A stretch of DNA of 62,035 bases from a virus: positions 1-62,035 of IMG/VR virus record IMGVR_UViG_3300032462_000004, one strand, 5' to 3'. Both the position numbers and the translations under genes were made by a program. The notes under the pieces are model-generated. The model saw only the letters and a list, made by a program, of their open reading frames with translations, did not search any database and had not been told where the DNA came from. Position 1 is the first letter of the stretch; each line of letters begins with the position of its first letter. This document shows, piece by piece, positions 1,411 through 33,533 of this stretch.

Positions 1411-2349
1411 ATGAATTACCAATTACATTATGATACCCTTATTAATAGGGCTAAACTTAGGATTTTACCATTAGATCAATATACTGAATCTCATCATATT
1501 AGGCCAACATGTATCGGTGGTAGAAATATTAAAGCTAATTTGGTTAAACTAACACCCGAGGAACATTTTGTAGCACATCAACTGCTAGTTAAGTTATATC
1601 CAGTCAATCCACTTATATTAAAAGCATGTCATATAATGACAAATAGTAACAGTAAAGTTAAACGAAATAATAAATTATACGGCTGGATAAGAAAGAGGTT
1701 AAGTATTCTATCGTCTAAAAGAGTAAACGTCGATGATACAATATACACATCGATGTTAGAGACTAGTAGGGTGTTCAATATTTCCGCGGATGTTGTCAGG
1801 CATAGATGTAAATCAACAAAATTTCCAAACTGGAATTATGCTGATGGCCTTATCATTAAGAAAATCGGAATAAGAGAAATAAATAAAATAAATTGCGATG
1901 GTATACTATTTCCATCTACCGTGCAAGCTGCCTTACATTTTAATATATCAAAAGATGCCGTCGGTCATAGATGTAAATCAACAAAATTTCCAAACTGGTT
2001 TATTATCGGAAAAGAAAAGACTGAAGAAACAAGAAATAAAAGACCGAATAAAGGTAAAATATTATGTGATGGTGTTATATTTGATGATATATACGAGGCA
2101 GCTAAATATTTTAACGTTTGCACTAATAGCATAAGTGCTAAATGTAACTCACTATATCATGAGAACTGGAATTTTTTAAATTCCCCGATAATTAAAATCA
2201 AGAAAGTAAAGAAAATTCCAGTGTGTGATAGTATTGAATTTGCATCATTCTCTGATGCAGCAAAATATTTCGGAATTACATTACAGGGTGTACTATATAG
2301 ATGTAAGACCGAAACATTTAAAGACTGGTATACTAAATATCTAAATTAA
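1411..2349 (+). CDS. HNH homing endonuclease with four NUMOD1-like repeats, 312 aa
   Basis: Residues about 25-70 carry the HNH nuclease signature: ESHHIRPTCIGG, then NLVKLTPEEHFVAHQLL. The C-terminal two thirds hold four copies of a roughly 42-residue DNA-binding repeat. Each has C/V-D-G/S-I-x-F, an AAxxFxI helix and RC-x-S/T-x-x-F-x-x-W, as in NUMOD1/IENR1 modules. Copies 1 and 2 share an identical 33-base stretch (1801-1833 and 1966-1998). The longer frame reaching back to 1210 is not coding: it is the antisense of the displaced clpA end, so ATG 1411 after the late box is preferred. The 3' end overlaps the clpA 3' end by 17 bases, tail to tail. It presumably cuts clpA alleles lacking the element. 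Confidence 0.9.
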   Translation: MNYQLHYDTLINRAKLRILPLDQYTESHHIRPTCIGGRNIKANLVKLTPEEHFVAHQLLVKLYPVNPLILKACHIMTNSNSKVKRNNKLYGWIRKRLSILSSKRVNVDDTIYTSMLETSRVFNISADVVRHRCKSTKFPNWNYADGLIIKKIGIREINKINCDGILFPSTVQAALHFNISKDAVGHRCKSTKFPNWFIIGKEKTEETRNKRPNKGKILCDGVIFDDIYEAAKYFNVCTNSISAKCNSLYHENWNFLNSPIIKIKKVKKIPVCDSIEFASFSDAAKYFGITLQGVLYRCKTETFKDWYTKYLN

Positions 2350-4555
2350 GAGATTCAGTAATCGTAGATTCAATTGTTAGGTGTATTTTGTCATCCAACA
2401 CATCAAATATTGCGTGGCCACCATTCCTTAGTTTACCGAACAATATTTCTTTAGACAGTGGCTTTTTAATCTCCGTCTCGGCTAAACGCTCGAGTGGTCG
2501 AGCACCCATCTTAGGATCGAATCCATGTTCGGCAAGCCAAGCACGGGCCGTTATTGTCACAGCAATCGTAATGTTCTTAGGAGCCAACATAACTTCTGTC
2601 TTCTCGACTTCAGCATTAACAATCAATGCCATTTCTGTCATTGTCAATTTCTTGTATTTGACAATACCATCCAGTCTGTTTCTAAATTCTGGAGTAAAGA
2701 ACTTTCTCAACTCGGTTTCAACAGCGGATGAATTGTCCTGATCACCAAACCCAATTTTCAATTGCTCTGCGGCAGCAGCACCAATGTTAGCTGAAAGAAT
2801 AATAATAGTGTTGGAGAAGTCAACTGTCTTTCCTTTTGCAGATGTAAGTCTGCCATCATCCATCACCTGCAATAATACAGTCAGTACATCCGGATGTGCC
2901 TTTTCAACTTCGTCCAGCAACAATACACAATTTGGATCAGTATCGACTGCCTGGATTAATTGCCCTTCGCCCATCTTACCTTCACCGTGCCCAACGTATC
3001 CCGGAGGGGCGCCGATGAACTTGGATACAGTGTGCTTTTCCATATATTCCGACATGTCGAATCGTGTAAATTTAACACCTAAGATCTCTGCAAGCTTCTT
3101 TGCCGTGTATGTCTTTCCGCTGCCAGTTGGGCCAGTAAACAAGAAGCTTCCAATCGGCTTAGCTGGATTACGCAATCCTGCTTTAGACAAGTGAATTGCA
3201 TCTACCAACTTGTCTAATGCCTCATCCTGACCATAGACTTTATCTTTGAGTCTTGGAGCAAGTTCTGCTAATGCATCATTTTCTTTCATATTCATCATCT
3301 GTGCAGGAATACGTGACAGCTTCGAAGCTGCTGAAAGAACAACGTCGTCCGAAACAACTTTCTGTTCATTCAGTTTAGCGTTTGCGCCGGCTGAGTCCAT
3401 AATGTCGATAGCCTTATCCGGGAAGAACTTTTGTTTCATGTAACGATCAGCAAGGTCCACACACATATCGAGTGTACCGGGGTTATAAGTTACATCGTGA
3501 AATTTCTCATAGTATTTTGCAAGTCCAGCAAGAATCAATTTTGTCTCAGCAACAGATGGCTGATTAATATCGTACTTCTGGAATCGACGAAGCAATGCTT
3601 TGTCCTTTTCGAAATGTTCATGGAACTCATCATATGTGGTTGCACCGACACACATAAGTTCGCCCTTAGCGAGCATAGGCTTCAATAAGTTGCCTGCATC
3701 CATTTGACTGCCAGTCGCGGAGCCAGCACCAAGAATCATGTGAATCTCATCGATGAACATGATACAGTTGCCGAGCTTCTTAACTTCGTCAAGTACACCT
3801 TTGAGGCGCTCTTCGAAATCACCTCGGAACTTTGTTCCTGCAAGCAATGCGCCGAGATCCAGACTGTATACAACTTTCTCCTGCAATGCTTTAGGAACTT
3901 CTTTGTTTGTAATTTTCAACGCCAGGCCTTCCGCAAGGGCAGTTTTTCCTACCCCCGGTTCCCCAACATAGATTACATTGTTCTTTTTCCTGCGAGCCAA
4001 GATTTCGATAGTATCGATAACTTCTTTCTCGCGACCAATGACAGGATCGATCTTGCCGTCTGCTGCTTCTTTATTGAGATTTCGAGCAAACTGGTCGAGT
4101 GCAGATTCTTCCTTTTCTTGGGATTTTTCATCTTGTTTACGTAATTTCTCAATCAGTTTTTCTCTGGTCACGCCGTTCTTATTCAGGAAATAATATGCGT
4201 GGCTTGTTTCCTCGCTAAGGATACTTAGCAAGACCGATTCGTTACTCAGCTCATTTCTGCCGCTGAATACAAGCTGTGTCAATGCACGTTGGAAGGTTCT
4301 GTGAACAACCTGTGTTCGTTTAGCAGGAATTTCCTTTAATGCATCTGGTTTTTTGAGATTAGGATCTGCAAGAAATGCAATAACATCTGCCTTTATCTTT
4401 GCAGGCTGGCAACCAGCAGACAAGATCATCTCATTTACTTCTTTCTGGTGCAACAGAGAAAGCAAAATGTGTTCCAATGTCACGTACTCATGATTATTAT
4501 CATTAGCAAACTCTGTTGCTTTTTCAACCATTTTTTCAACTTTCTTAGTACTCAT
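2333..4555 (-). CDS. clpA: ClpA-type AAA+ unfoldase, 740 aa
   Basis: Full-length Hsp100 unfoldase of the ClpA class. It has a Clp N domain (about 1-145); a first AAA module with Walker A GEPGVGKT (198-205) and Walker B IMFIDE (265-270); and a second module with GPTGSGKT (475-482) and VLLLDE (544-549). The ClpP-docking loop IGF is at 601-603, in the same context (GDQDNS after it) as the IGL loop of E. coli ClpA, and arginine-rich TPEFRNRLD follows. There is no ClpB-type middle domain, so a protease partner rather than a disaggregase is expected. The last ~50 residues, from ARPLER (685-690) on, were supplied by an inserted HNH element. The gene ends the operon infA-dnaJ-clpA. ClpS and ClpP partners are encoded elsewhere in the window. 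Confidence 0.95.
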   Translation of the reverse strand: MSTKKVEKMVEKATEFANDNNHEYVTLEHILLSLLHQKEVNEMILSAGCQPAKIKADVIAFLADPNLKKPDALKEIPAKRTQVVHRTFQRALTQLVFSGRNELSNESVLLSILSEETSHAYYFLNKNGVTREKLIEKLRKQDEKSQEKEESALDQFARNLNKEAADGKIDPVIGREKEVIDTIEILARRKKNNVIYVGEPGVGKTALAEGLALKITNKEVPKALQEKVVYSLDLGALLAGTKFRGDFEERLKGVLDEVKKLGNCIMFIDEIHMILGAGSATGSQMDAGNLLKPMLAKGELMCVGATTYDEFHEHFEKDKALLRRFQKYDINQPSVAETKLILAGLAKYYEKFHDVTYNPGTLDMCVDLADRYMKQKFFPDKAIDIMDSAGANAKLNEQKVVSDDVVLSAASKLSRIPAQMMNMKENDALAELAPRLKDKVYGQDEALDKLVDAIHLSKAGLRNPAKPIGSFLFTGPTGSGKTYTAKKLAEILGVKFTRFDMSEYMEKHTVSKFIGAPPGYVGHGEGKMGEGQLIQAVDTDPNCVLLLDEVEKAHPDVLTVLLQVMDDGRLTSAKGKTVDFSNTIIILSANIGAAAAEQLKIGFGDQDNSSAVETELRKFFTPEFRNRLDGIVKYKKLTMTEMALIVNAEVEKTEVMLAPKNITIAVTITARAWLAEHGFDPKMGARPLERLAETEIKKPLSKEILFGKLRNGGHAIFDVLDDKIHLTIESTITESLNLDI

Positions 4556-20530: not shown

Positions 20531-21127
20531 TCAAGCCCTTTTATCTACTATATGATCTGCAAGTCCCAATTCCAATGCCATCGGCGCCGGCAACCATTTA
20601 TCACGGTCCATTAGTTCTGCAAACTTTTCGTACGATACTCCTTTCGAATTATGTTTAACATATAGTTCTGTCATTTCTTTCTTGATACGCAAACTCTCAA
20701 TAAGATCAATTTCCATATCAGACACCTTACCACGTGTGCCGGATGATGGCTGATGGATCATTGTTATCGCCCTTGGCAAAAGATATCTATGTCCAGGTGT
20801 ACCAGCTTGTGCAAGAAAAGACCCCATACTGGCTGCCATCCCCGTAACATATGTGTGGACTGGACTTTTGATATATTGCATAACATCATAAACTGCCAGA
20901 CCGTCATAAACAGAACCCCCCGGACTATTTATGTACATGCTAATAGGCATTTCTGGATTCTCTGCTTCGAGGAATAACATCTGTGCAACCAGGATATTAC
21001 ACATGTGTGTTTCTACCGGGCCCGTAAGGAAAATTACACGTTCCTTCATTAAACGAGAATATAGATCGTAAGACCTTTCCCCACGTGGTGTTTGTTCTAC
21101 TACCATTGGGATTAAAGCGTTTTGCAT
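20531..21127 (-). CDS. clpP: ClpP protease subunit, canonical triad, 198 aa
   Basis: ClpP serine peptidase with Ser100 in [10 protein letters not shown], His125 in TMIHQP and Asp176 in DRDKWL, equivalent to Ser97, His122 and Asp171 of E. coli. NSPGG (68-72) forms the oxyanion and substrate strand. Length suits a mature 14-mer subunit; the short N-terminus includes the axial-loop region. It lies 14 bases after a divergent second clpP. ClpA and ClpX encoded here both keep IGF docking loops. Confidence 0.95.
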
Positions 21128-27845: not shown

Positions 27846-28715
27846 ATGTCAACACCCTTCACTTACAAAATAACCTTTAATAAAACCGGATATTTTTATA
27901 TTGGATCCTGTTATAAGAAAGGTGCTCATCCTTTTCAACTCGGTAATATCTATTTCTCATCTTCTAACACCGTAAAGAATTTATTAAAAATAGATAATAA
28001 TGTAACATATAAAATTATTTCTACCTATACAGACATAGAAAGTGCTATATTAGATGAGAAGAGGTTGATAGAAGAAAACTTTAATGATCCATTAAATATA
28101 AATCTACATCGTGGAACAGGTTCTTTAAATCTTGCGAAATATTATATATTATTACAAGCAGGAATAATACAACATCCGATAAAAGGTAAACATAGAATAA
28201 CAAACGGAACTATTATTAAATTTTCAACAGAAATTCCTACTGGATTTATAATTTGTTCATCTAAATCAGTTAAAGATAAAAAATGCTATAATAATGGTAA
28301 ACGGGACAAATATTTTTCAATAGAAGATAATATACCGGACGAATATATCTTCGGATCAATTCACAAAAAACACAATAAGGATAAGAGATGGATCACCGAT
28401 GGATTAAAAAATCTTTGTACCGGTAAGAATGATATTATTCCGATTGGATTTTATCCTGGTCATACACAATATCATAAATATCAAAAATTGACATATTATA
28501 ATAATGGTATAAAAAATATCAGGATACAGGAAATCAATAAAATACCAGATGGATTCGTTATAGGAAGATTACAGAATCATGGCGATTTTAAGAAAAATTC
28601 AGAAAAGAAATACTGGATAAATGATGGCATAAGACAAAAGCTAATTCCCGTATCCGAATCGTGCCCTAATGGATTTACATTAGGTAGACCCTTACGCTCT
28701 ACTCAATTAACTTAA
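27846..28715 (+). CDS. GIY-YIG-like homing endonuclease with short repeats, 289 aa
   Basis: The N-terminus YKITFNKTGYFYIGSCYKK corresponds to the first strands of a GIY-YIG domain (Y-K-I...Y-F-Y-I-G), with E-K-R-L-I-E-E-N and N-L-H-R-G-T-G later as in the family. The rest has about five repeats of the pattern Y/W-x-N/T-x-G...I-P-x-G-F-x-x-G-R (WITDGLKN..IPIGFYPG, YYNNGIKN..IPDGFVIGR, YWINDGIRQ..CPNGFTLGR), frequent in phage homing genes. Very AT-rich relative to neighbours, which fits recent acquisition. It lies between ligase and the disrupted tRNA-like gene. Confidence 0.75.
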   Translation: MSTPFTYKITFNKTGYFYIGSCYKKGAHPFQLGNIYFSSSNTVKNLLKIDNNVTYKIISTYTDIESAILDEKRLIEENFNDPLNINLHRGTGSLNLAKYYILLQAGIIQHPIKGKHRITNGTIIKFSTEIPTGFIICSSKSVKDKKCYNNGKRDKYFSIEDNIPDEYIFGSIHKKHNKDKRWITDGLKNLCTGKNDIIPIGFYPGHTQYHKYQKLTYYNNGIKNIRIQEINKIPDGFVIGRLQNHGDFKKNSEKKYWINDGIRQKLIPVSESCPNGFTLGRPLRSTQLT

Positions 28716-28866
28716 GTTCTCTATCCAATATGTATGTTGCCATCTCTGGGAGATAAGTGTCATACATCCTGTCATAGTGGTTTTCACAATATGATTTTCC
28801 AAATATAGTGGGCTGATGACATTTTTCACCATCCCCAATCCATGTACATTTCTTTTCTAATTTCAT
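28699..28866 (-). CDS. Small zinc-finger-like protein, 55 aa
   Basis: ATG 28866 to TAG 28699: KKCTWIGDGEKCHQPTIFG then SYCENHYDRMY gives C-x7-C-H and C-x-x-H, a compact zinc-binding layout known in small phage proteins. Its 3' end overlaps the convergent homing gene by 17 bases. It starts eight bases after the 3' end of the tRNA-like element, on the same strand. Confidence 0.65.
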   Translation of the reverse strand: MKLEKKCTWIGDGEKCHQPTIFGKSYCENHYDRMYDTYLPEMATYILDRELKLIE

Positions 28867-28873
28867 ATATTAG

Positions 28874-29010
28874 GCCCTATGATGGAACACTTCAAACCAC
28901 CGACCTATCAGTTAAGTGCTGATTGCTCTCTATAATGTAACTAAGACAACATAGAGGAGGCGGCGCCGCCTTGTGTCTAGAGGCTATTTGTTTTTCTGAG
29001 CTAATAGGGC
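28874..29010 (-). tRNA. tRNA-Lys(CUU)-like gene disrupted by a D-loop insertion
   Basis: All four tRNA stems are present on the minus strand. Acceptor GCCCTAT/ATAGGGC (29010-29004 with 28880-28874), D stem GCTC/GAGC, anticodon stem ATCAG/CTGAT around loop CACTTAA (anticodon CTT), variable loop AGGTC, T stem GGTGG/CCATC. Three defects stand out: a 69-base D-loop (28929-28997) instead of about 10, A instead of U at position 33, and an 11-base T loop. The insert holds the palindrome GGCGGCGCCGCC, very GC-rich for this genome. Probably a non-functional or intron-like-interrupted tRNA; identity Lys is inferred from the anticodon. Confidence 0.7.
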
Positions 29011-29028
29011 AATATTATTATAACACAG

Positions 29029-29355
29029 TTATTCTAATTCTTCAAGGTGTTCCATAATAATTTTATTATAGCCATGATTTATTGCGAATTCTATTAATTC
29101 CGGTAATGAAGCTTCTTCTTCAGATGTGGAATACCAAAAGATACTATGGGGATCTACATCTTCATATCCTGCAAGAACTTCGATAGATTTTGCTAGGTAA
29201 TTTTGCATTGTCTTAAAATCATCCGTATAGGGGCCCAAAGCGGCGTCTAGAATTTCAGAGTGAGGGATTACTTGGATGGAGCCTACTATCTTTCCTGATT
29301 GATCAGATACTGTGTAATCTGTCCCAAGTTGATCAATGTGCGTAATTTTATACAT
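29029..29355 (-). CDS. Unknown protein, 108 aa
   Basis: ATG 29355 is preferred over 29397 because TAGGAG lies seven bases before it; the extra 14 codons have no support. Product is acidic with no known motif (YKITHIDQLGTDYTVSD start, KIIMEHLEELE end). Follows the 344-residue gene. Confidence 0.65.
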   Translation of the reverse strand: MYKITHIDQLGTDYTVSDQSGKIVGSIQVIPHSEILDAALGPYTDDFKTMQNYLAKSIEVLAGYEDVDPHSIFWYSTSEEEASLPELIEFAINHGYNKIIMEHLEELE

Positions 29356-29403
29356 AATTTCTCCTAGATTTTTATTATAATTCTCTATCTCTGCCAATAC
29401 TAT

Positions 29404-30467: not shown

Positions 30468-30773
30468 TTATAATTCTTCGTATGTCACAGTTAATGGAAA
30501 ACTGTTTGCGCGAGCATAAGCAACCGACTCGGTTGTCTTTTCCTGTGCGATTTCCAATGTATATGGTGCACCAGCAATACCCTGGCCATTCACATGGACA
30601 GATTTCGCAATCTCGACTGCTTCTTCCATGTCCTTATGGAAGATTGTTATCAGAATGGATATGACAAATTCAAACGTGGTAGAATCGTCATTGTGCAACA
30701 GGACTTTGTATAATTTCGGGATCAAAACTTTAATAGTTTCGTCAACTCTCTCGATAATCTCTATATCTGACAT
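30468..30773 (-). CDS. clpS: ClpS adaptor for N-degron substrates, 101 aa
   Basis: Full ClpS core: LHNDDSTTFEFVISIL with N28-D29-D30, F-H-K-D, and VHVNGQGIAG with His60, then YTLEIAQEKT and FPLTVTYEEL. The Asp pair and His are the residues that bind the N-terminal amino group of N-degron substrates and hand them to ClpA. The N-terminal extension (about 20 residues) needed for delivery is present. With clpA, clpX and clpP genes in this window it completes an N-end-rule degradation pathway. It follows a GIY-YIG gene behind a sigma70-type promoter. Confidence 0.92.
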   Translation of the reverse strand: MSDIEIIERVDETIKVLIPKLYKVLLHNDDSTTFEFVISILITIFHKDMEEAVEIAKSVHVNGQGIAGAPYTLEIAQEKTTESVAYARANSFPLTVTYEEL

Positions 30774-30790: not shown

Positions 30791-31411
30791 CTAGTGTGTT
30801 AATGATCTACGTAATTGTTGTGCTATTCTCATTTTATTCTTTGTATCTTCAGATTTCGAACGACCTGCTAATGCATTTGATATTTTATCTTTGTGATCTT
30901 GCGTATGCGGCCCCTGCTTTTTACCCATATGGCTTTTAGAAATCTTTAGTTTAACTTCCTTTGATCGACTATTTCCCCTATTAATATTCGACATCCTTTG
31001 CATATGTTCCGGAGAATGCATTTTTCCTTTTTGTGCAATCGACATCTTCTCTTTAGTCTCATCTGAGAATATTCTGCCCGTTAATGCAATAGAAAGTTTA
31101 TTTTTATGTTCTTCCGAAAATATAGCACCGGGAGATCCTTCCCCTCCATCTGTCTTATTATGTAAAATACCAGTTCCCAAATCTTTTCTTCCGTACCATT
31201 TAATCATTCTTCGTTCTAAACACAAAGACCCAAAGTTAGTCAGATTCGTCTCTAAAAACACAATTTTAGTATTATCTTTAGGTAAAGAAACGCCGACATG
31301 CTTTCTATACGCCCTGTCTCCAGAACCCTTTCCTATATAATATGGTGTTCCGCTCTTTGCTGTTATAGAATCGCTCGATCTAATATATGCATAAACGTAA
31401 AAACTAATCAT
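30791..31411 (-). CDS. GIY-YIG homing endonuclease with NUMOD3 repeats, 206 aa
   Basis: Intact GIY-YIG nuclease: FYVYAYIRS, YYIGKGSGDRAYRK, catalytic-region LERRMIKWYGRKDLGTG and NKTDGGEG. The C-terminal half has about five NUMOD3-like repeats (SEEHKNKLSIALTG, SDETKEKMSIAQKGK, SPEHMQRMSNINRG) for DNA binding. Free-standing between hsp20 and clpS. It is the intact relative of the broken copy at 23150-23781. Confidence 0.92.
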   Translation of the reverse strand: MISFYVYAYIRSSDSITAKSGTPYYIGKGSGDRAYRKHVGVSLPKDNTKIVFLETNLTNFGSLCLERRMIKWYGRKDLGTGILHNKTDGGEGSPGAIFSEEHKNKLSIALTGRIFSDETKEKMSIAQKGKMHSPEHMQRMSNINRGNSRSKEVKLKISKSHMGKKQGPHTQDHKDKISNALAGRSKSEDTKNKMRIAQQLRRSLTH

Positions 31412-31478: not shown

Positions 31479-31898
31479 TTAAAAGATATTAATTACTTTT
31501 GGCTTATCGGCCTCGGGTTCATTCTTCTGCAAATTAATAGATAGTAATCCATCTGCCAATTTTGCGTCGACAACTTTGATGTATTCCGCAAGCCTGATGG
31601 ACTTGGTGAAAGATCTTTGTCCTATTCCCCTGAATTGATAGTTTCCCTGGTACTCGCTAGTTTTGTCTGTTTTAGTTCCGGTAATTGTTAGGACACCTTT
31701 TAGTTCCTCAATTGCAATTTCTTCTCTTTTGAATCCTGCAACTGCAAGTTCCAGGACATAATTGTTATCATAACCCTGTACAATGTTGTGTGGAGGATAG
31801 CCGGTAACGGCATATTGAAATTCTCTGAATATTGGGCTGAAGCCAACTGTTAGTGAGTCGAGACGATCGTACAATTTATCAAATCCATCTTTAGGCAT
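31479..31898 (-). CDS. Hsp20 small heat-shock protein, 139 aa
   Basis: Alpha-crystallin domain with YVLELAVAGFKREEIAIE, LTITGTK, FRGIGQRSFTKSIRLAEYI and the strand ADGLLSINL, as in IbpA/Hsp20. N-terminal YDRLDSLTVGFSPIFREF is the IbpA-like arm (FxxxFR). It holds denatured proteins for ClpA/DnaJ/DnaK processing. Own late promoter with a hairpin at the mRNA 5' end. Confidence 0.93.
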   Translation of the reverse strand: MPKDGFDKLYDRLDSLTVGFSPIFREFQYAVTGYPPHNIVQGYDNNYVLELAVAGFKREEIAIEELKGVLTITGTKTDKTSEYQGNYQFRGIGQRSFTKSIRLAEYIKVVDAKLADGLLSINLQKNEPEADKPKVINIF

Positions 31899-32056: not shown

Positions 32057-32311
32057 TTAGTATTTTTTGTCTTTGAGCCAGGCGCCGTTCTCGATCTGGT
32101 CCTCGACTATTCTTTCCCAGCGTTTACGTGCTTGCTTCTTAAGGCGCTGTCTTAATACAGCTGGCTTCTCGTAGGACATACGATCTTTGACCTCTTTGAG
32201 CAGGCCCGAATCTTGGACCTTCTTGGACCAAGTGCGTAACGCTCTTCCAAAGTCGTCATTTCTGACTTCTACAACGAGTCCTCGGACTCTGCGGTTATCT
32301 CTATTATTCAT
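32057..32311 (-). CDS. rpsU: Ribosomal protein bS21 homologue, 84 aa
   Basis: Matches bS21: GLVVEVRNDDFGRALRTW, SGLLKEVKDR, YEKPAVLRQ and a Lys/Arg helix KKQARKRWER. bS21 sits near the anti-Shine-Dalgarno end of 16S rRNA and helps choose mRNAs. ATG 32311 overlaps the clpX stop (ATGAATAA) and gives the family length; a longer frame to 32368 lies inside clpX. A phage copy can replace host bS21 and bias translation. IF-1 is encoded at 5390. Confidence 0.92.
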   Translation of the reverse strand: MNNRDNRRVRGLVVEVRNDDFGRALRTWSKKVQDSGLLKEVKDRMSYEKPAVLRQRLKKQARKRWERIVEDQIENGAWLKDKKY

Positions 32312-33533
32312 CGTTTGCTCGTTTTTCTGCCTTGTATACATGTTTAATATTCCCGGTTGCGTCAACATAAATTTTGGTAACGCCGGCTTTCGCTAATCTC
32401 GGCAAAGTAAATTGAACAGCCAGGAGATTCTTCTCCATAATCGAACGCAAACCCCTTGCTCCAATTTTCTGTTTCAAACATTCTGCTGATACATTCAGTA
32501 GGTATTTATCATCAAACTCTAAAGTCACCCCATCATACTTAAATAATGCTTTAAACTGGTCTACTAAGCAGTTTTTAGGTTCTTTTAGGATTCTGAGCAG
32601 CGTCTGTTCTGACAAATCATCAAATACAACTACAACTGGGTGGCGACCGACAAATTCCGGTATTAAACCATATTTGACAAAGTCGGACGGTATTGCTGTT
32701 TTAACAATATTGGAGAATAATGTCTTGGTCTGCAATGGTGCTCCAAATCCAATTCCAGACTTTGATCTATTTTTCCTGATAATCTCATCTAGTCCGACAA
32801 ATGCACCACTACAAATGAACAGTACATCCTTTGTATCAAAATCGACCATTTCGCCATATTCATCTTCGATCTTCAGAACTGTGCCTTCTATAAGCTTCAG
32901 CAATGACTGTTGGACGCCTTCGCCGGATACATCTCGACTAATAGTAGAGGATTCGCTCTTTCTGCTCTTTTTATCTATCTCGTCAATGAAGATAATCCCG
33001 AACTTAGCTTTTTCTATGTCATCGTCTGCATTTGAAATTAATCTCTTTATCAAACTATCTACATCTTCCCCTACATACCCTGCTTCTGTCAATGTAGTTG
33101 CGTCTGCTATAACGTATGGCAAATCAAATAGTTTTGCAATAGTCTTTACTGTTAATGTCTTGCCAGAGCCGGATTCCCCGACCATAAGAAGGTTTGATTT
33201 ATCAATTTCTACGCCCGACTTGTCACTTATTCGCTTATAGTGGTTTCGTACTGCTACAGATATGGCAATCTTTGCGTCATCTTGTGCAATTATGTATTCA
33301 TCTAGAAATTTCTTAATTTGCTCGGGTGTGTAGATTTGTGTAGTTTTCTTTTTCTCTAGCTTAATGGTATCTTCATGATGAAGTATATCGTAAGTCATGT
33401 CAACACATTCATTACAAATGTAGATATTCTCTGTATCCATTACAGGACCTTCTACCATTTGATCTACTTCGTGCCTGCCCTTTTTGCAAAACGAACAAGT
33501 AATGATTTCCCTAATAATGTCATTATTTCCCAT
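32304..33533 (-). CDS. clpX: ClpX-type AAA+ unfoldase, 409 aa
   Basis: N-terminal zinc domain with Cys13, Cys16, Cys40 and Cys43; Walker A GESGSGKT (119-126); Walker B IFIDEID (181-187); pore-2 region GEGVQQSLLKLIEGT (205-219); ClpP-docking IGF at 261-263 in KSGIGFGAP; C-terminal small domain with KIGARGLRSIMEK. Near full length (E. coli 424). The Walker A has ES instead of PT, a conservative change. It follows a membrane protein and overlaps rpsU. Substrate specificity may differ from host ClpX because the zinc domain linker is unlike E. coli. Confidence 0.95.
   Translation of the reverse strand: MGNNDIIREIITCSFCKKGRHEVDQMVEGPVMDTENIYICNECVDMTYDILHHEDTIKLEKKKTTQIYTPEQIKKFLDEYIIAQDDAKIAISVAVRNHYKRISDKSGVEIDKSNLLMVGESGSGKTLTVKTIAKLFDLPYVIADATTLTEAGYVGEDVDSLIKRLISNADDDIEKAKFGIIFIDEIDKKSRKSESSTISRDVSGEGVQQSLLKLIEGTVLKIEDEYGEMVDFDTKDVLFICSGAFVGLDEIIRKNRSKSGIGFGAPLQTKTLFSNIVKTAIPSDFVKYGLIPEFVGRHPVVVVFDDLSEQTLLRILKEPKNCLVDQFKALFKYDGVTLEFDDKYLLNVSAECLKQKIGARGLRSIMEKNLLAVQFTLPRLAKAGVTKIYVDATGNIKHVYKAEKRANDE

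What the first reader, a model, noticed from the sequence alone, without database searches (positions are those of the whole stretch)
28874..29010. tRNA-Lys-like gene split by a 69-base structured D-loop insert
All stems of a tRNA are intact, including a perfect 7-bp acceptor, yet the D-loop holds a 69-base insert that itself can fold (CTA-GACA with TGTC-T-TAG) around the palindrome GGCGGCGCCGCC. U33 is A, and the T loop has 11 bases. Either a dying tRNA invaded by a small mobile hairpin, or an unusual tRNA-like RNA. GC content of the palindrome is far above the genome.
Basis: partly seen in the sequence, partly recalled or inferred. Interest (0 to 1): 0.7.

Follow-up and report, generated by a model that had tools for sequence, protein, structure and literature searches.

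The report
Phage tRNA-like RNA with giant D-arm
A large bacterial virus and its relatives carry a conserved small RNA that is shaped like a transfer RNA but has one arm rebuilt into a long folded domain; it is clearly kept by selection, mostly unfit for ordinary protein synthesis, and resembles a phage T4 RNA whose job has been unknown for decades.

Summary
The RNA lies on the minus strand, 29010 to 28874: a tRNA cloverleaf with a 69-nt D-loop and an 11-nt T-loop. It is not a dying tRNA. Twenty-two distinct homologs occur in one uncultured jumbo-phage lineage that is syntenic with Pseudomonas phage PA5oct, all just downstream of the same 108-aa gene. Covariation is very strong: 23 of 40 pairs change on both sides, and none of 500 shuffles reaches this. 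It includes the helices of the "insert", which therefore is a folded long D-arm. 21 of 22 have a sigma-70-like promoter placing the start at or next to nucleotide 1 of the acceptor stem; 14 of 22 encode a 3' ACCA. The decoding end is degenerate: A33 in 13 and an 8-nt anticodon loop in 3, so only 6 have a canonical loop, although all end in U36-A37-A38. Two relatives have lost the RNA with its promoter. Rfam, ARAGORN, GenBank phages, plasmids and 84,980 prokaryote genomes gave no homolog. The closest known architecture is phage T4 stable RNA species 1 (RNA C, function unknown), which also folds as a tRNA-like body with a ~60-nt D-arm but is not detectably homologous. Best reading: a tRNA mimic acting in trans. 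Target inferred, not shown.

The parts
29040..29045 (-). -35 hexamer TTGAAG, inside the end of the upstream 108/122-aa gene
   Evidence: 17- or 18-nt spacer in the 21 homologs with a promoter
29017..29022 (-). -10 hexamer TATAAT, preceded by TG
   Evidence: TANNNT 5-7 nt before nt 1 in 21 of 22 homologs
28874..29010 (-). the tRNA-like RNA, 137 nt; predicted transcription start at nt 1 (29010)
29004..29010 (-). acceptor stem 5' strand GCCCUAU
   Evidence: double-sided compensatory changes in 6 of its 7 pairs
28998..29001 (-). D stem 5' strand GCUC, invariant in 22 of 22
28929..28997 (-). 69-nt D-loop folded as a long D-arm
28990..28992 (-). D-arm helix P1b 5' strand AAC (pairs with GUU 28939-28941); also complementary to T-loop UGUU
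28983..28987 (-). D-arm helix P2 5' strand AUAGC (pairs with GUUGU 28946-28950)
   Evidence: 5 of 6 helix pairs with double changes
28976..28979 (-). D-arm helix P3 5' strand UAGA (pairs with UCUA 28952-28955)
   Evidence: 3 of 4 pairs with double changes, 86% of cells paired
28959..28970 (-). apical palindromic hairpin GGCG[GCGC]CGCC
   Evidence: 2 of 4 pairs with double changes, 98.9% paired; palindrome kept in most relatives
28925..28928 (-). D stem 3' strand GAGC
28907..28923 (-). anticodon arm AUCAG-CACUUAA-CUGAU; A33, nominal anticodon CUU, U36-A37-A38
   Evidence: double changes at all 4 modelled pairs and at the fifth; loops tabulated
28881..28901 (-). T arm GGUGG-UUUGAAGUGUU-CCAUC, 11-nt loop with UGUU added after position 60
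28874..28880 (-). acceptor stem 3' strand AUAGGGC; no encoded CCA in the window (14 of 22 homologs have ACCA)
29029..29397 (-). upstream neighbour, 108 aa in relatives (122 aa with an alternative start), unknown function; always precedes the RNA
28699..28866 (-). downstream 55-aa Cys/His-rich ORF; not always the next gene in relatives

Best explanation
It is a conserved, separately transcribed, tRNA-derived non-coding RNA of a jumbo-phage lineage. Shown: it folds as a tRNA cloverleaf whose D-arm has become a ~65-nt structured domain and whose T-loop has grown to 11 nt; selection keeps its helices; a sigma-70-like promoter places the start at about its first nucleotide. Inferred: it keeps the tRNA core (U8, A14, G15, A26, G46, C48, U54, A58; often encoded CCA) so that a tRNA-handling factor binds it, while the changed elbow and decoding loop stop it from working as an ordinary elongator tRNA. 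The most likely role is a tRNA mimic that engages or occupies such a factor in trans, for example an anticodon nuclease, tRNA-modifying enzyme, synthetase or processing nuclease, with the D-arm as an added binding or assembly module. The anticodon loop (always ending U36-A37-A38, with variable 33-35) is the likely site of specificity.
For: Covariation over 22 homologs: 94.9% of cells paired, 23 pairs with double changes, 0/500 shuffles on all five measures, slid controls 30-48% paired. Promoter in 21 of 22. Window RNA 67.6-86.5% identical to relatives, against 33-66% for the 300 bp upstream and 56-69% for the downstream ORF. tRNA body recognised by ARAGORN in 15 of 19 after shortening the D- and T-loops. 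A33 in 13, an 8-nt anticodon loop in 3, U33 with 7 nt in only 6; all end UAA. Independent of the downstream gene: 55-aa ORF, PD-DExK-like, DUF2201-like or ligase follows, some with their own promoter. A 362.8-kb relative with 42 ordinary tRNAs above the cut-off still keeps it. Accessory: lost with its promoter in L028 and L040, which nest among carriers.
Against: No target, expression or processing data exist. Six homologs have a canonical anticodon loop and 14 encode ACCA, which a pure mimic would not strictly need. The promoter -35 lies inside a conserved coding tail, and L223 has no clear promoter. The mimic reading rests on what is kept and lost, not on a partner.
Confidence: 0.5

Rival explanations
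1. An unusual but working elongator tRNA for ANN codons (Lys, Arg, Ile) whose D-arm expansion is tolerated by the ribosome, supplementing the host pool.
For: Cloverleaf core intact; 14 of 22 encode ACCA; anticodons CUU, UUU, UCU, GAU and UAU all have U36-A37-A38; stems covary.
Against: A33 in 13 and an 8-nt loop in 3 of 22; no G18-G19 element, and C56 replaced by U or A in all but L046; the anticodon differs between phages 98% identical upstream (L039/L043); 42 ordinary tRNAs in the 362.8-kb relative.
Confidence: 0.2
2. A structural RNA that dimerises or oligomerises through its palindromic apical D-arm loop (GCGC, GGCC), the tRNA body serving as scaffold, by analogy with phage RNAs that form RNA-only complexes.
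For: The apical palindrome is kept through compensatory change (GGCGCC, GGGCCC, GCCGGCGCCGGC). Phage-encoded GOLLD and ROOL assemble through kissing loops (PMC12286853).
Against: L032 and L046 break the palindromic loop; a stable hairpin alone could explain the GC-rich sequence; the RNA is far smaller than GOLLD or ROOL.
Confidence: 0.12
3. A cis-acting 5' leader of the downstream gene that mimics tRNA to regulate its translation or mRNA stability.
For: In the window the RNA ends 7 nt before the ATG of the 55-aa ORF, with no terminator between them.
Against: The next gene varies in relatives (ligase in L230, DUF2201-like in L019, L025 and L223, PD-DExK-like in L008 and L042) and often has its own -10 element; the invariant neighbour is upstream, not downstream.
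Confidence: 0.06
4. A tRNA with an intron in the D-loop that is removed to give a normal tRNA.
For: The insert is bounded by AG...AG (GCUCAG|AAAAAC...YCU|AGUUACA) and has nearly constant length.
Against: Cutting at the AG repeats leaves a D-loop without G18-G19 and does not mend the 11-nt T-loop. Even with UGUU also removed ARAGORN accepts only 2 of 19 such products, and with the T-loop as it is none. Bacteria are not known to have a splicing endonuclease of that kind (general knowledge). L249 lacks the AGUUACA junction.
Confidence: 0.05
5. A decaying tRNA invaded by a small mobile palindromic element.
For: No ordinary tRNA caller recognises it; insert GC far above the genome.
Against: 22 homologs share insert, position and compensatory changes; no second copy in the window; conservation at least as high as flanking genes.
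Confidence: 0.02

Closest known systems
Bacteriophage T4 stable RNA species 1 (RNA C, rnaC, NC_000866 70908-71046)
   Same: 139 nt against 137-141 nt; tRNA-like with acceptor-like ends, T-arm, anticodon-like arm and a ~60-nt structured D-arm, supported by 14 compensatory pairs over 7 Tevenvirinae and related homologs; carried by large phages; T4 literature gives no function (PMC3014915, PMC9697503).
   Different: Not detectably homologous: model R1 does not match rnaC and R2 does not match this family. T4 RNA C has a normal 7-nt T-loop, a 10-bp anticodon-like arm with fixed loop CGUCAA, U-U mismatches in the acceptor, no CCA, and lies next to the tRNA cluster.
Canonical phage tRNA (Rfam RF00005)
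   Same: 7-bp acceptor, U8-A9, GCUC/GAGC D stem, A26, 5-bp anticodon stem, 5-nt variable loop, 5-bp T stem, ACCA in 14 of 22.
   Different: 69-nt D-loop, 11-nt T-loop, no G18-G19/C56 elbow, A33 or 8-nt loop in 16 of 22; below Rfam and ARAGORN thresholds.
Phage tRNAs that evade anticodon nucleases (PARIS/T5 tRNA-Lys; van den Berg et al. 2023)
   Same: Phage-encoded, anticodon-arm changes, often nominal tRNA-Lys (PMC11455837, PMC10264068).
   Different: Those are ordinary tRNAs that replace cleaved host tRNA; here the body carries an extra domain and mostly lacks U33.
GOLLD and ROOL RNAs
   Same: Phage-encoded structured RNAs of unknown function; kissing loops (PMC12286853).
   Different: Hundreds of nucleotides, no tRNA body as core; no Rfam match here.

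Membership tests
Canonical tRNA | Cloverleaf with 7-bp acceptor, 5-bp anticodon stem and 5-bp T stem | tested here: met
   mismatches at 1-72 and 27-43 in some homologs
Canonical tRNA | Reaches the RF00005 gathering score or an ARAGORN call as it stands | tested here: not met
   a weak partial RF00005 hit only for L029's record (21.1 bits)
Canonical tRNA | 7-nt anticodon loop with U33 | tested here: not met
   6 of 22 only; the window has A33
Canonical tRNA | G18-G19 in the D-loop pairing with U55-C56 of a 7-nt T-loop | tested here: not met
   T-loop 11 nt in all; position 56 is U or A in all but L046
Canonical tRNA | Aminoacylation and ribosomal decoding | not testable with these tools
   needs biochemistry
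T4 RNA C (species 1) family | tRNA-like body with a D-arm of about 60 nt | tested here: met
   (architecture only)
T4 RNA C (species 1) family | Sequence/structure homology by covariance model | tested here: not met
   R1 against the T4 region: only ordinary tRNAs score well; R2 against this family: none
T4 RNA C (species 1) family | Long anticodon-like arm with conserved CGUCAA loop | tested here: not met
tmRNA | Rfam or ARAGORN tmRNA match; mRNA-like tag ORF | tested here: not met
   no hit; D-loop lengths 64-71 nt differ by single nucleotides, so no shared frame
tRNA-Sec | Long acceptor-T branch, UCA anticodon, 6-bp D stem with 4-nt loop | tested here: not met
   7-bp acceptor, anticodons CUU, UUU, UCU, GAU, UAU
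GOLLD/ROOL | Rfam match; several hundred nt | tested here: not met

The most novel reading that the evidence does not exclude
Large phages have repeatedly built a class of trans-acting RNAs by grafting a folded domain onto the D-arm of a tRNA. The window family and T4 RNA C would be two founding members, with a D-arm-expanded tRNA-Arg in a 237-kb relative as a possible third, sharing a function in taking over or protecting the host's tRNA machinery.
Probability: 0.3. Interest if true: 0.82.

Novelty: new variant of a known kind. Interest (0 to 1): 0.62.

Why it matters
T4 RNA C has been known for decades and still has no function. A second, apparently unrelated family with the same architecture and 22 diverged sequences says that a tRNA body with an enlarged D-arm is useful to large phages, and shows which positions matter. 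It also shows a kind of phage RNA that standard tRNA callers and Rfam miss, so more probably lie unannotated. If the mimic reading holds, it would be a phage tool against tRNA-targeting defences or for control of translation.

Tried and rejected
Exact pattern scan of 84,980 bacterial and archaeal genomes: 117 hits, none real by covariance model. GenBank phages and plasmids by blastn: no real match. The neighbouring 344-, 122-, 108- and 55-aa proteins by tblastn in GenBank phages: nothing. Of the first pattern's 13 hits, 8 were judged chance matches by eye, among them L014/L016, whose motif falls at the end of an opposite-strand gene. D-loop/T-loop kissing AACA:UGUU was tested: compatible in 98.7% of cells but with no double changes, so neither shown nor excluded, and it competes with AAC/GUU. 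CTA-GACA/TGTC-T-TAG helix: not conserved. No homolog in PA5oct. A snoRNA hit (SNORD51, E 3.3) is chance. Two paper searches for D-arm insertions in phage tRNAs found nothing.

Full report
WHAT IS THERE. On the minus strand from 29010 to 28874 lies a 137-nt tRNA-like RNA: acceptor GCCCUAU/AUAGGGC, U8-A9, D stem GCUC/GAGC, a 69-nt D-loop, A26, anticodon arm AUCAG-CACUUAA-CUGAU, variable loop AGGUC, T arm GGUGG-UUUGAAGUGUU-CCAUC. ARAGORN finds no tRNA in the window and Rfam finds no family. Folded alone the sequence is unremarkable (z -1.0), so the question had to be settled by comparison.

RELATIVES. A search with the neighbouring 122-aa protein gave a first relative at 60%. A gapped DNA pattern shared with it hit 13 IMG/VR contigs, five of which were real; a search with the neighbouring 55-aa ORF, a relaxed D-loop pattern and a T-loop pattern brought the total to 22 distinct RNAs, on contigs up to 362.8 kb. 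In every case where the upstream side could be read, the RNA sits directly downstream of the same 108-aa gene, in the order HSP20, ClpS, 344-aa SufBD-like, 108-aa, RNA, then a variable gene, then DNA ligase. The neighbourhood is syntenic with Pseudomonas phage PA5oct (Arenbergviridae), which has no copy of the RNA.

STRUCTURE. On the 22-sequence alignment 94.9% of cells form standard pairs; 23 of 40 pairs have compensatory double changes (109 cells, shuffle mean 34); none of 500 shuffles reaches any of the five measures, and sliding the partners by 1-3 columns drops pairing to 30-48%. The acceptor is rewritten in L223 (UUCCCAA/UUGGGAA) and partly in L037 and L029. The insert is a long D-arm: AG/CU, AAC/GUU, then a 6-bp helix (5 pairs with double changes), UAGA/UCUA, and an apical GC hairpin whose palindromic loop GCGC or GGCC survives in most sequences. 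RNAalifold predicts nearly the same arm by itself from the 19-sequence alignment. The alignment was fitted to a model built on five of the sequences, which leans towards that structure, but the other 17 were not used to derive it.

TRNA ANCESTRY. With the D-loop trimmed and UGUU removed from the T-loop, ARAGORN calls a tRNA in 15 of 19 homologs (mostly Lys CUU; also Arg UCU and Ile GAU or UAU); with the 11-nt T-loop kept, 0 of 19. Core positions U8, A14, G15, A26, C48, U54 and A58 are kept (read directly); 14 of 22 encode 3' ACCA, the window does not. The elbow G18-G19/C56 is gone. The anticodon loop is CACUUAA (A33) in 12, UAUAUAA in 1, 8 nt long in 3 (L046, L230, L249), and canonical with U33 in only 6; all 22 end in U36-A37-A38.

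EXPRESSION UNIT. 21 of 22 have a -10 element (TATAAT in 8) 5-7 nt before nt 1 with a -35-like hexamer at a 17- or 18-nt spacing; the window's is the best promoter match of the surroundings, 10 of 12 with TG before the -10. Transcription is thus predicted to start at or next to the acceptor's first nucleotide, without a leader. The -35 usually lies in the coding tail of the 108-aa gene, so its conservation alone proves nothing, but L004, whose gene ends earlier, has a perfect TTGACA at the same 17-nt spacing. Downstream genes vary and often have their own -10, so the RNA is its own gene.

SELECTION AND TURNOVER. The window RNA is 67.6-86.5% identical to relatives, against 33-66% for the 300 bp upstream and 56-69% for the 55-aa ORF. 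Two relatives without it (L028, L040) are nested among carriers (support 0.99 each), so promoter and RNA were lost at least twice. L039 and L043 are 98.3% identical upstream but 78.7% in the RNA and 77.6% beyond, with different anticodon loops, which points to recombination at or near the RNA. A 362.8-kb relative with 42 ordinary tRNAs above the cut-off keeps the RNA. So it is accessory, under strong purifying selection, and not a substitute for missing tRNAs.

HOW IT PROBABLY WORKS. Shown: a folded, tRNA-derived RNA under selection, with a conserved promoter of its own. Inferred: it is not an ordinary elongator tRNA, since U33, the 7-nt loop and the elbow contacts are mostly missing; it acts as a tRNA mimic in trans, with the anticodon loop (U36-A37-A38 fixed, 33-35 variable) and the D-arm as recognition surfaces. 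Phage tRNAs with altered anticodon arms are known to defeat tRNA-cutting defences (PMC11455837, PMC10264068), so such a factor is a plausible target, but nothing here names it.

CLOSEST KNOWN. From memory I recalled T4 stable RNA species 1 and then tested it. T4 rnaC (139 nt) folds with z -4.6 into a tRNA-like body with T arm CCGGG-UUCGAAU-CCCGG, an anticodon-like arm and a ~60-nt D-arm; 7 homologs of T4-like phages give 14 compensatory pairs. The T4 literature states that its role is unknown (PMC3014915) and that it is a late RNA confirmed by Northern blot (PMC9697503). Covariance models of the two families do not find each other. It is therefore the same architecture without shown homology.

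LIMITS. All homologs are from uncultured contigs, no transcript data could be consulted, and the function is inferred.

Noticed in passing
window 2333-4555, 20531-21127, 30468-30773, 31479-31898, 32304-33533: The phage encodes a ClpA/B-like ATPase, ClpP, ClpS, HSP20 and a ClpX-like ATPase, a nearly full set of Clp proteolysis including the N-degron adaptor; PA5oct shares ClpX, ClpS, ClpP and HSP20.
   Followed up: partly
window 32057-32368: 103-aa ORF in the place where PA5oct has a 30S ribosomal protein S21; by eye a phage-encoded bS21 homolog close to the tRNA-like RNA.
   Followed up: no
L215:256-446 (L219:5456-5646; 237-kb relative of L040): tRNA-Arg(UCU)-like body with ACCA and a different 113-nt D-loop insert, inside a ~1.7-kb stretch next to tRNA-Thr with almost no ORFs and strongly folding windows (z -4.4, -3.4, -2.6): candidate further D-arm-expanded tRNA or giant ncRNA. 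No homolog of the insert in the records searched.
   Followed up: partly
L215:441-514: Just 3' of that tRNA-like body an inverted repeat of about 18 bp (ACCATATAGAAACACATT/AATGTGTTTCTATATGGT) overlaps its CCA end.
   Followed up: no
L269:1409-1547 (T4 rnaC): In T4 RNA C and its homologs the D-arm apical sequence UUGACG is complementary to the conserved anticodon-like loop CGUCAA: a possible 6-bp kissing interaction.
   Followed up: partly
L008, L042, L019, L025, L223 just 3' of the RNA: Genes inserted or exchanged directly after the RNA: a 143-aa ORF that looks PD-DExK-like and a ~400-aa DUF2201/VWA-like ORF (by eye).
   Followed up: no
window 27846-28715 and 30791-31411: Homing-endonuclease-like ORFs (289 aa, PHROG homing endonuclease; 206 aa with NUMOD3) next to the RNA neighbourhood.
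   Followed up: no
L039 against L043: Recombination breakpoint near the RNA: 98.3% identity upstream, 78.7% in the RNA, 77.6% downstream, with an anticodon swap.
   Followed up: partly
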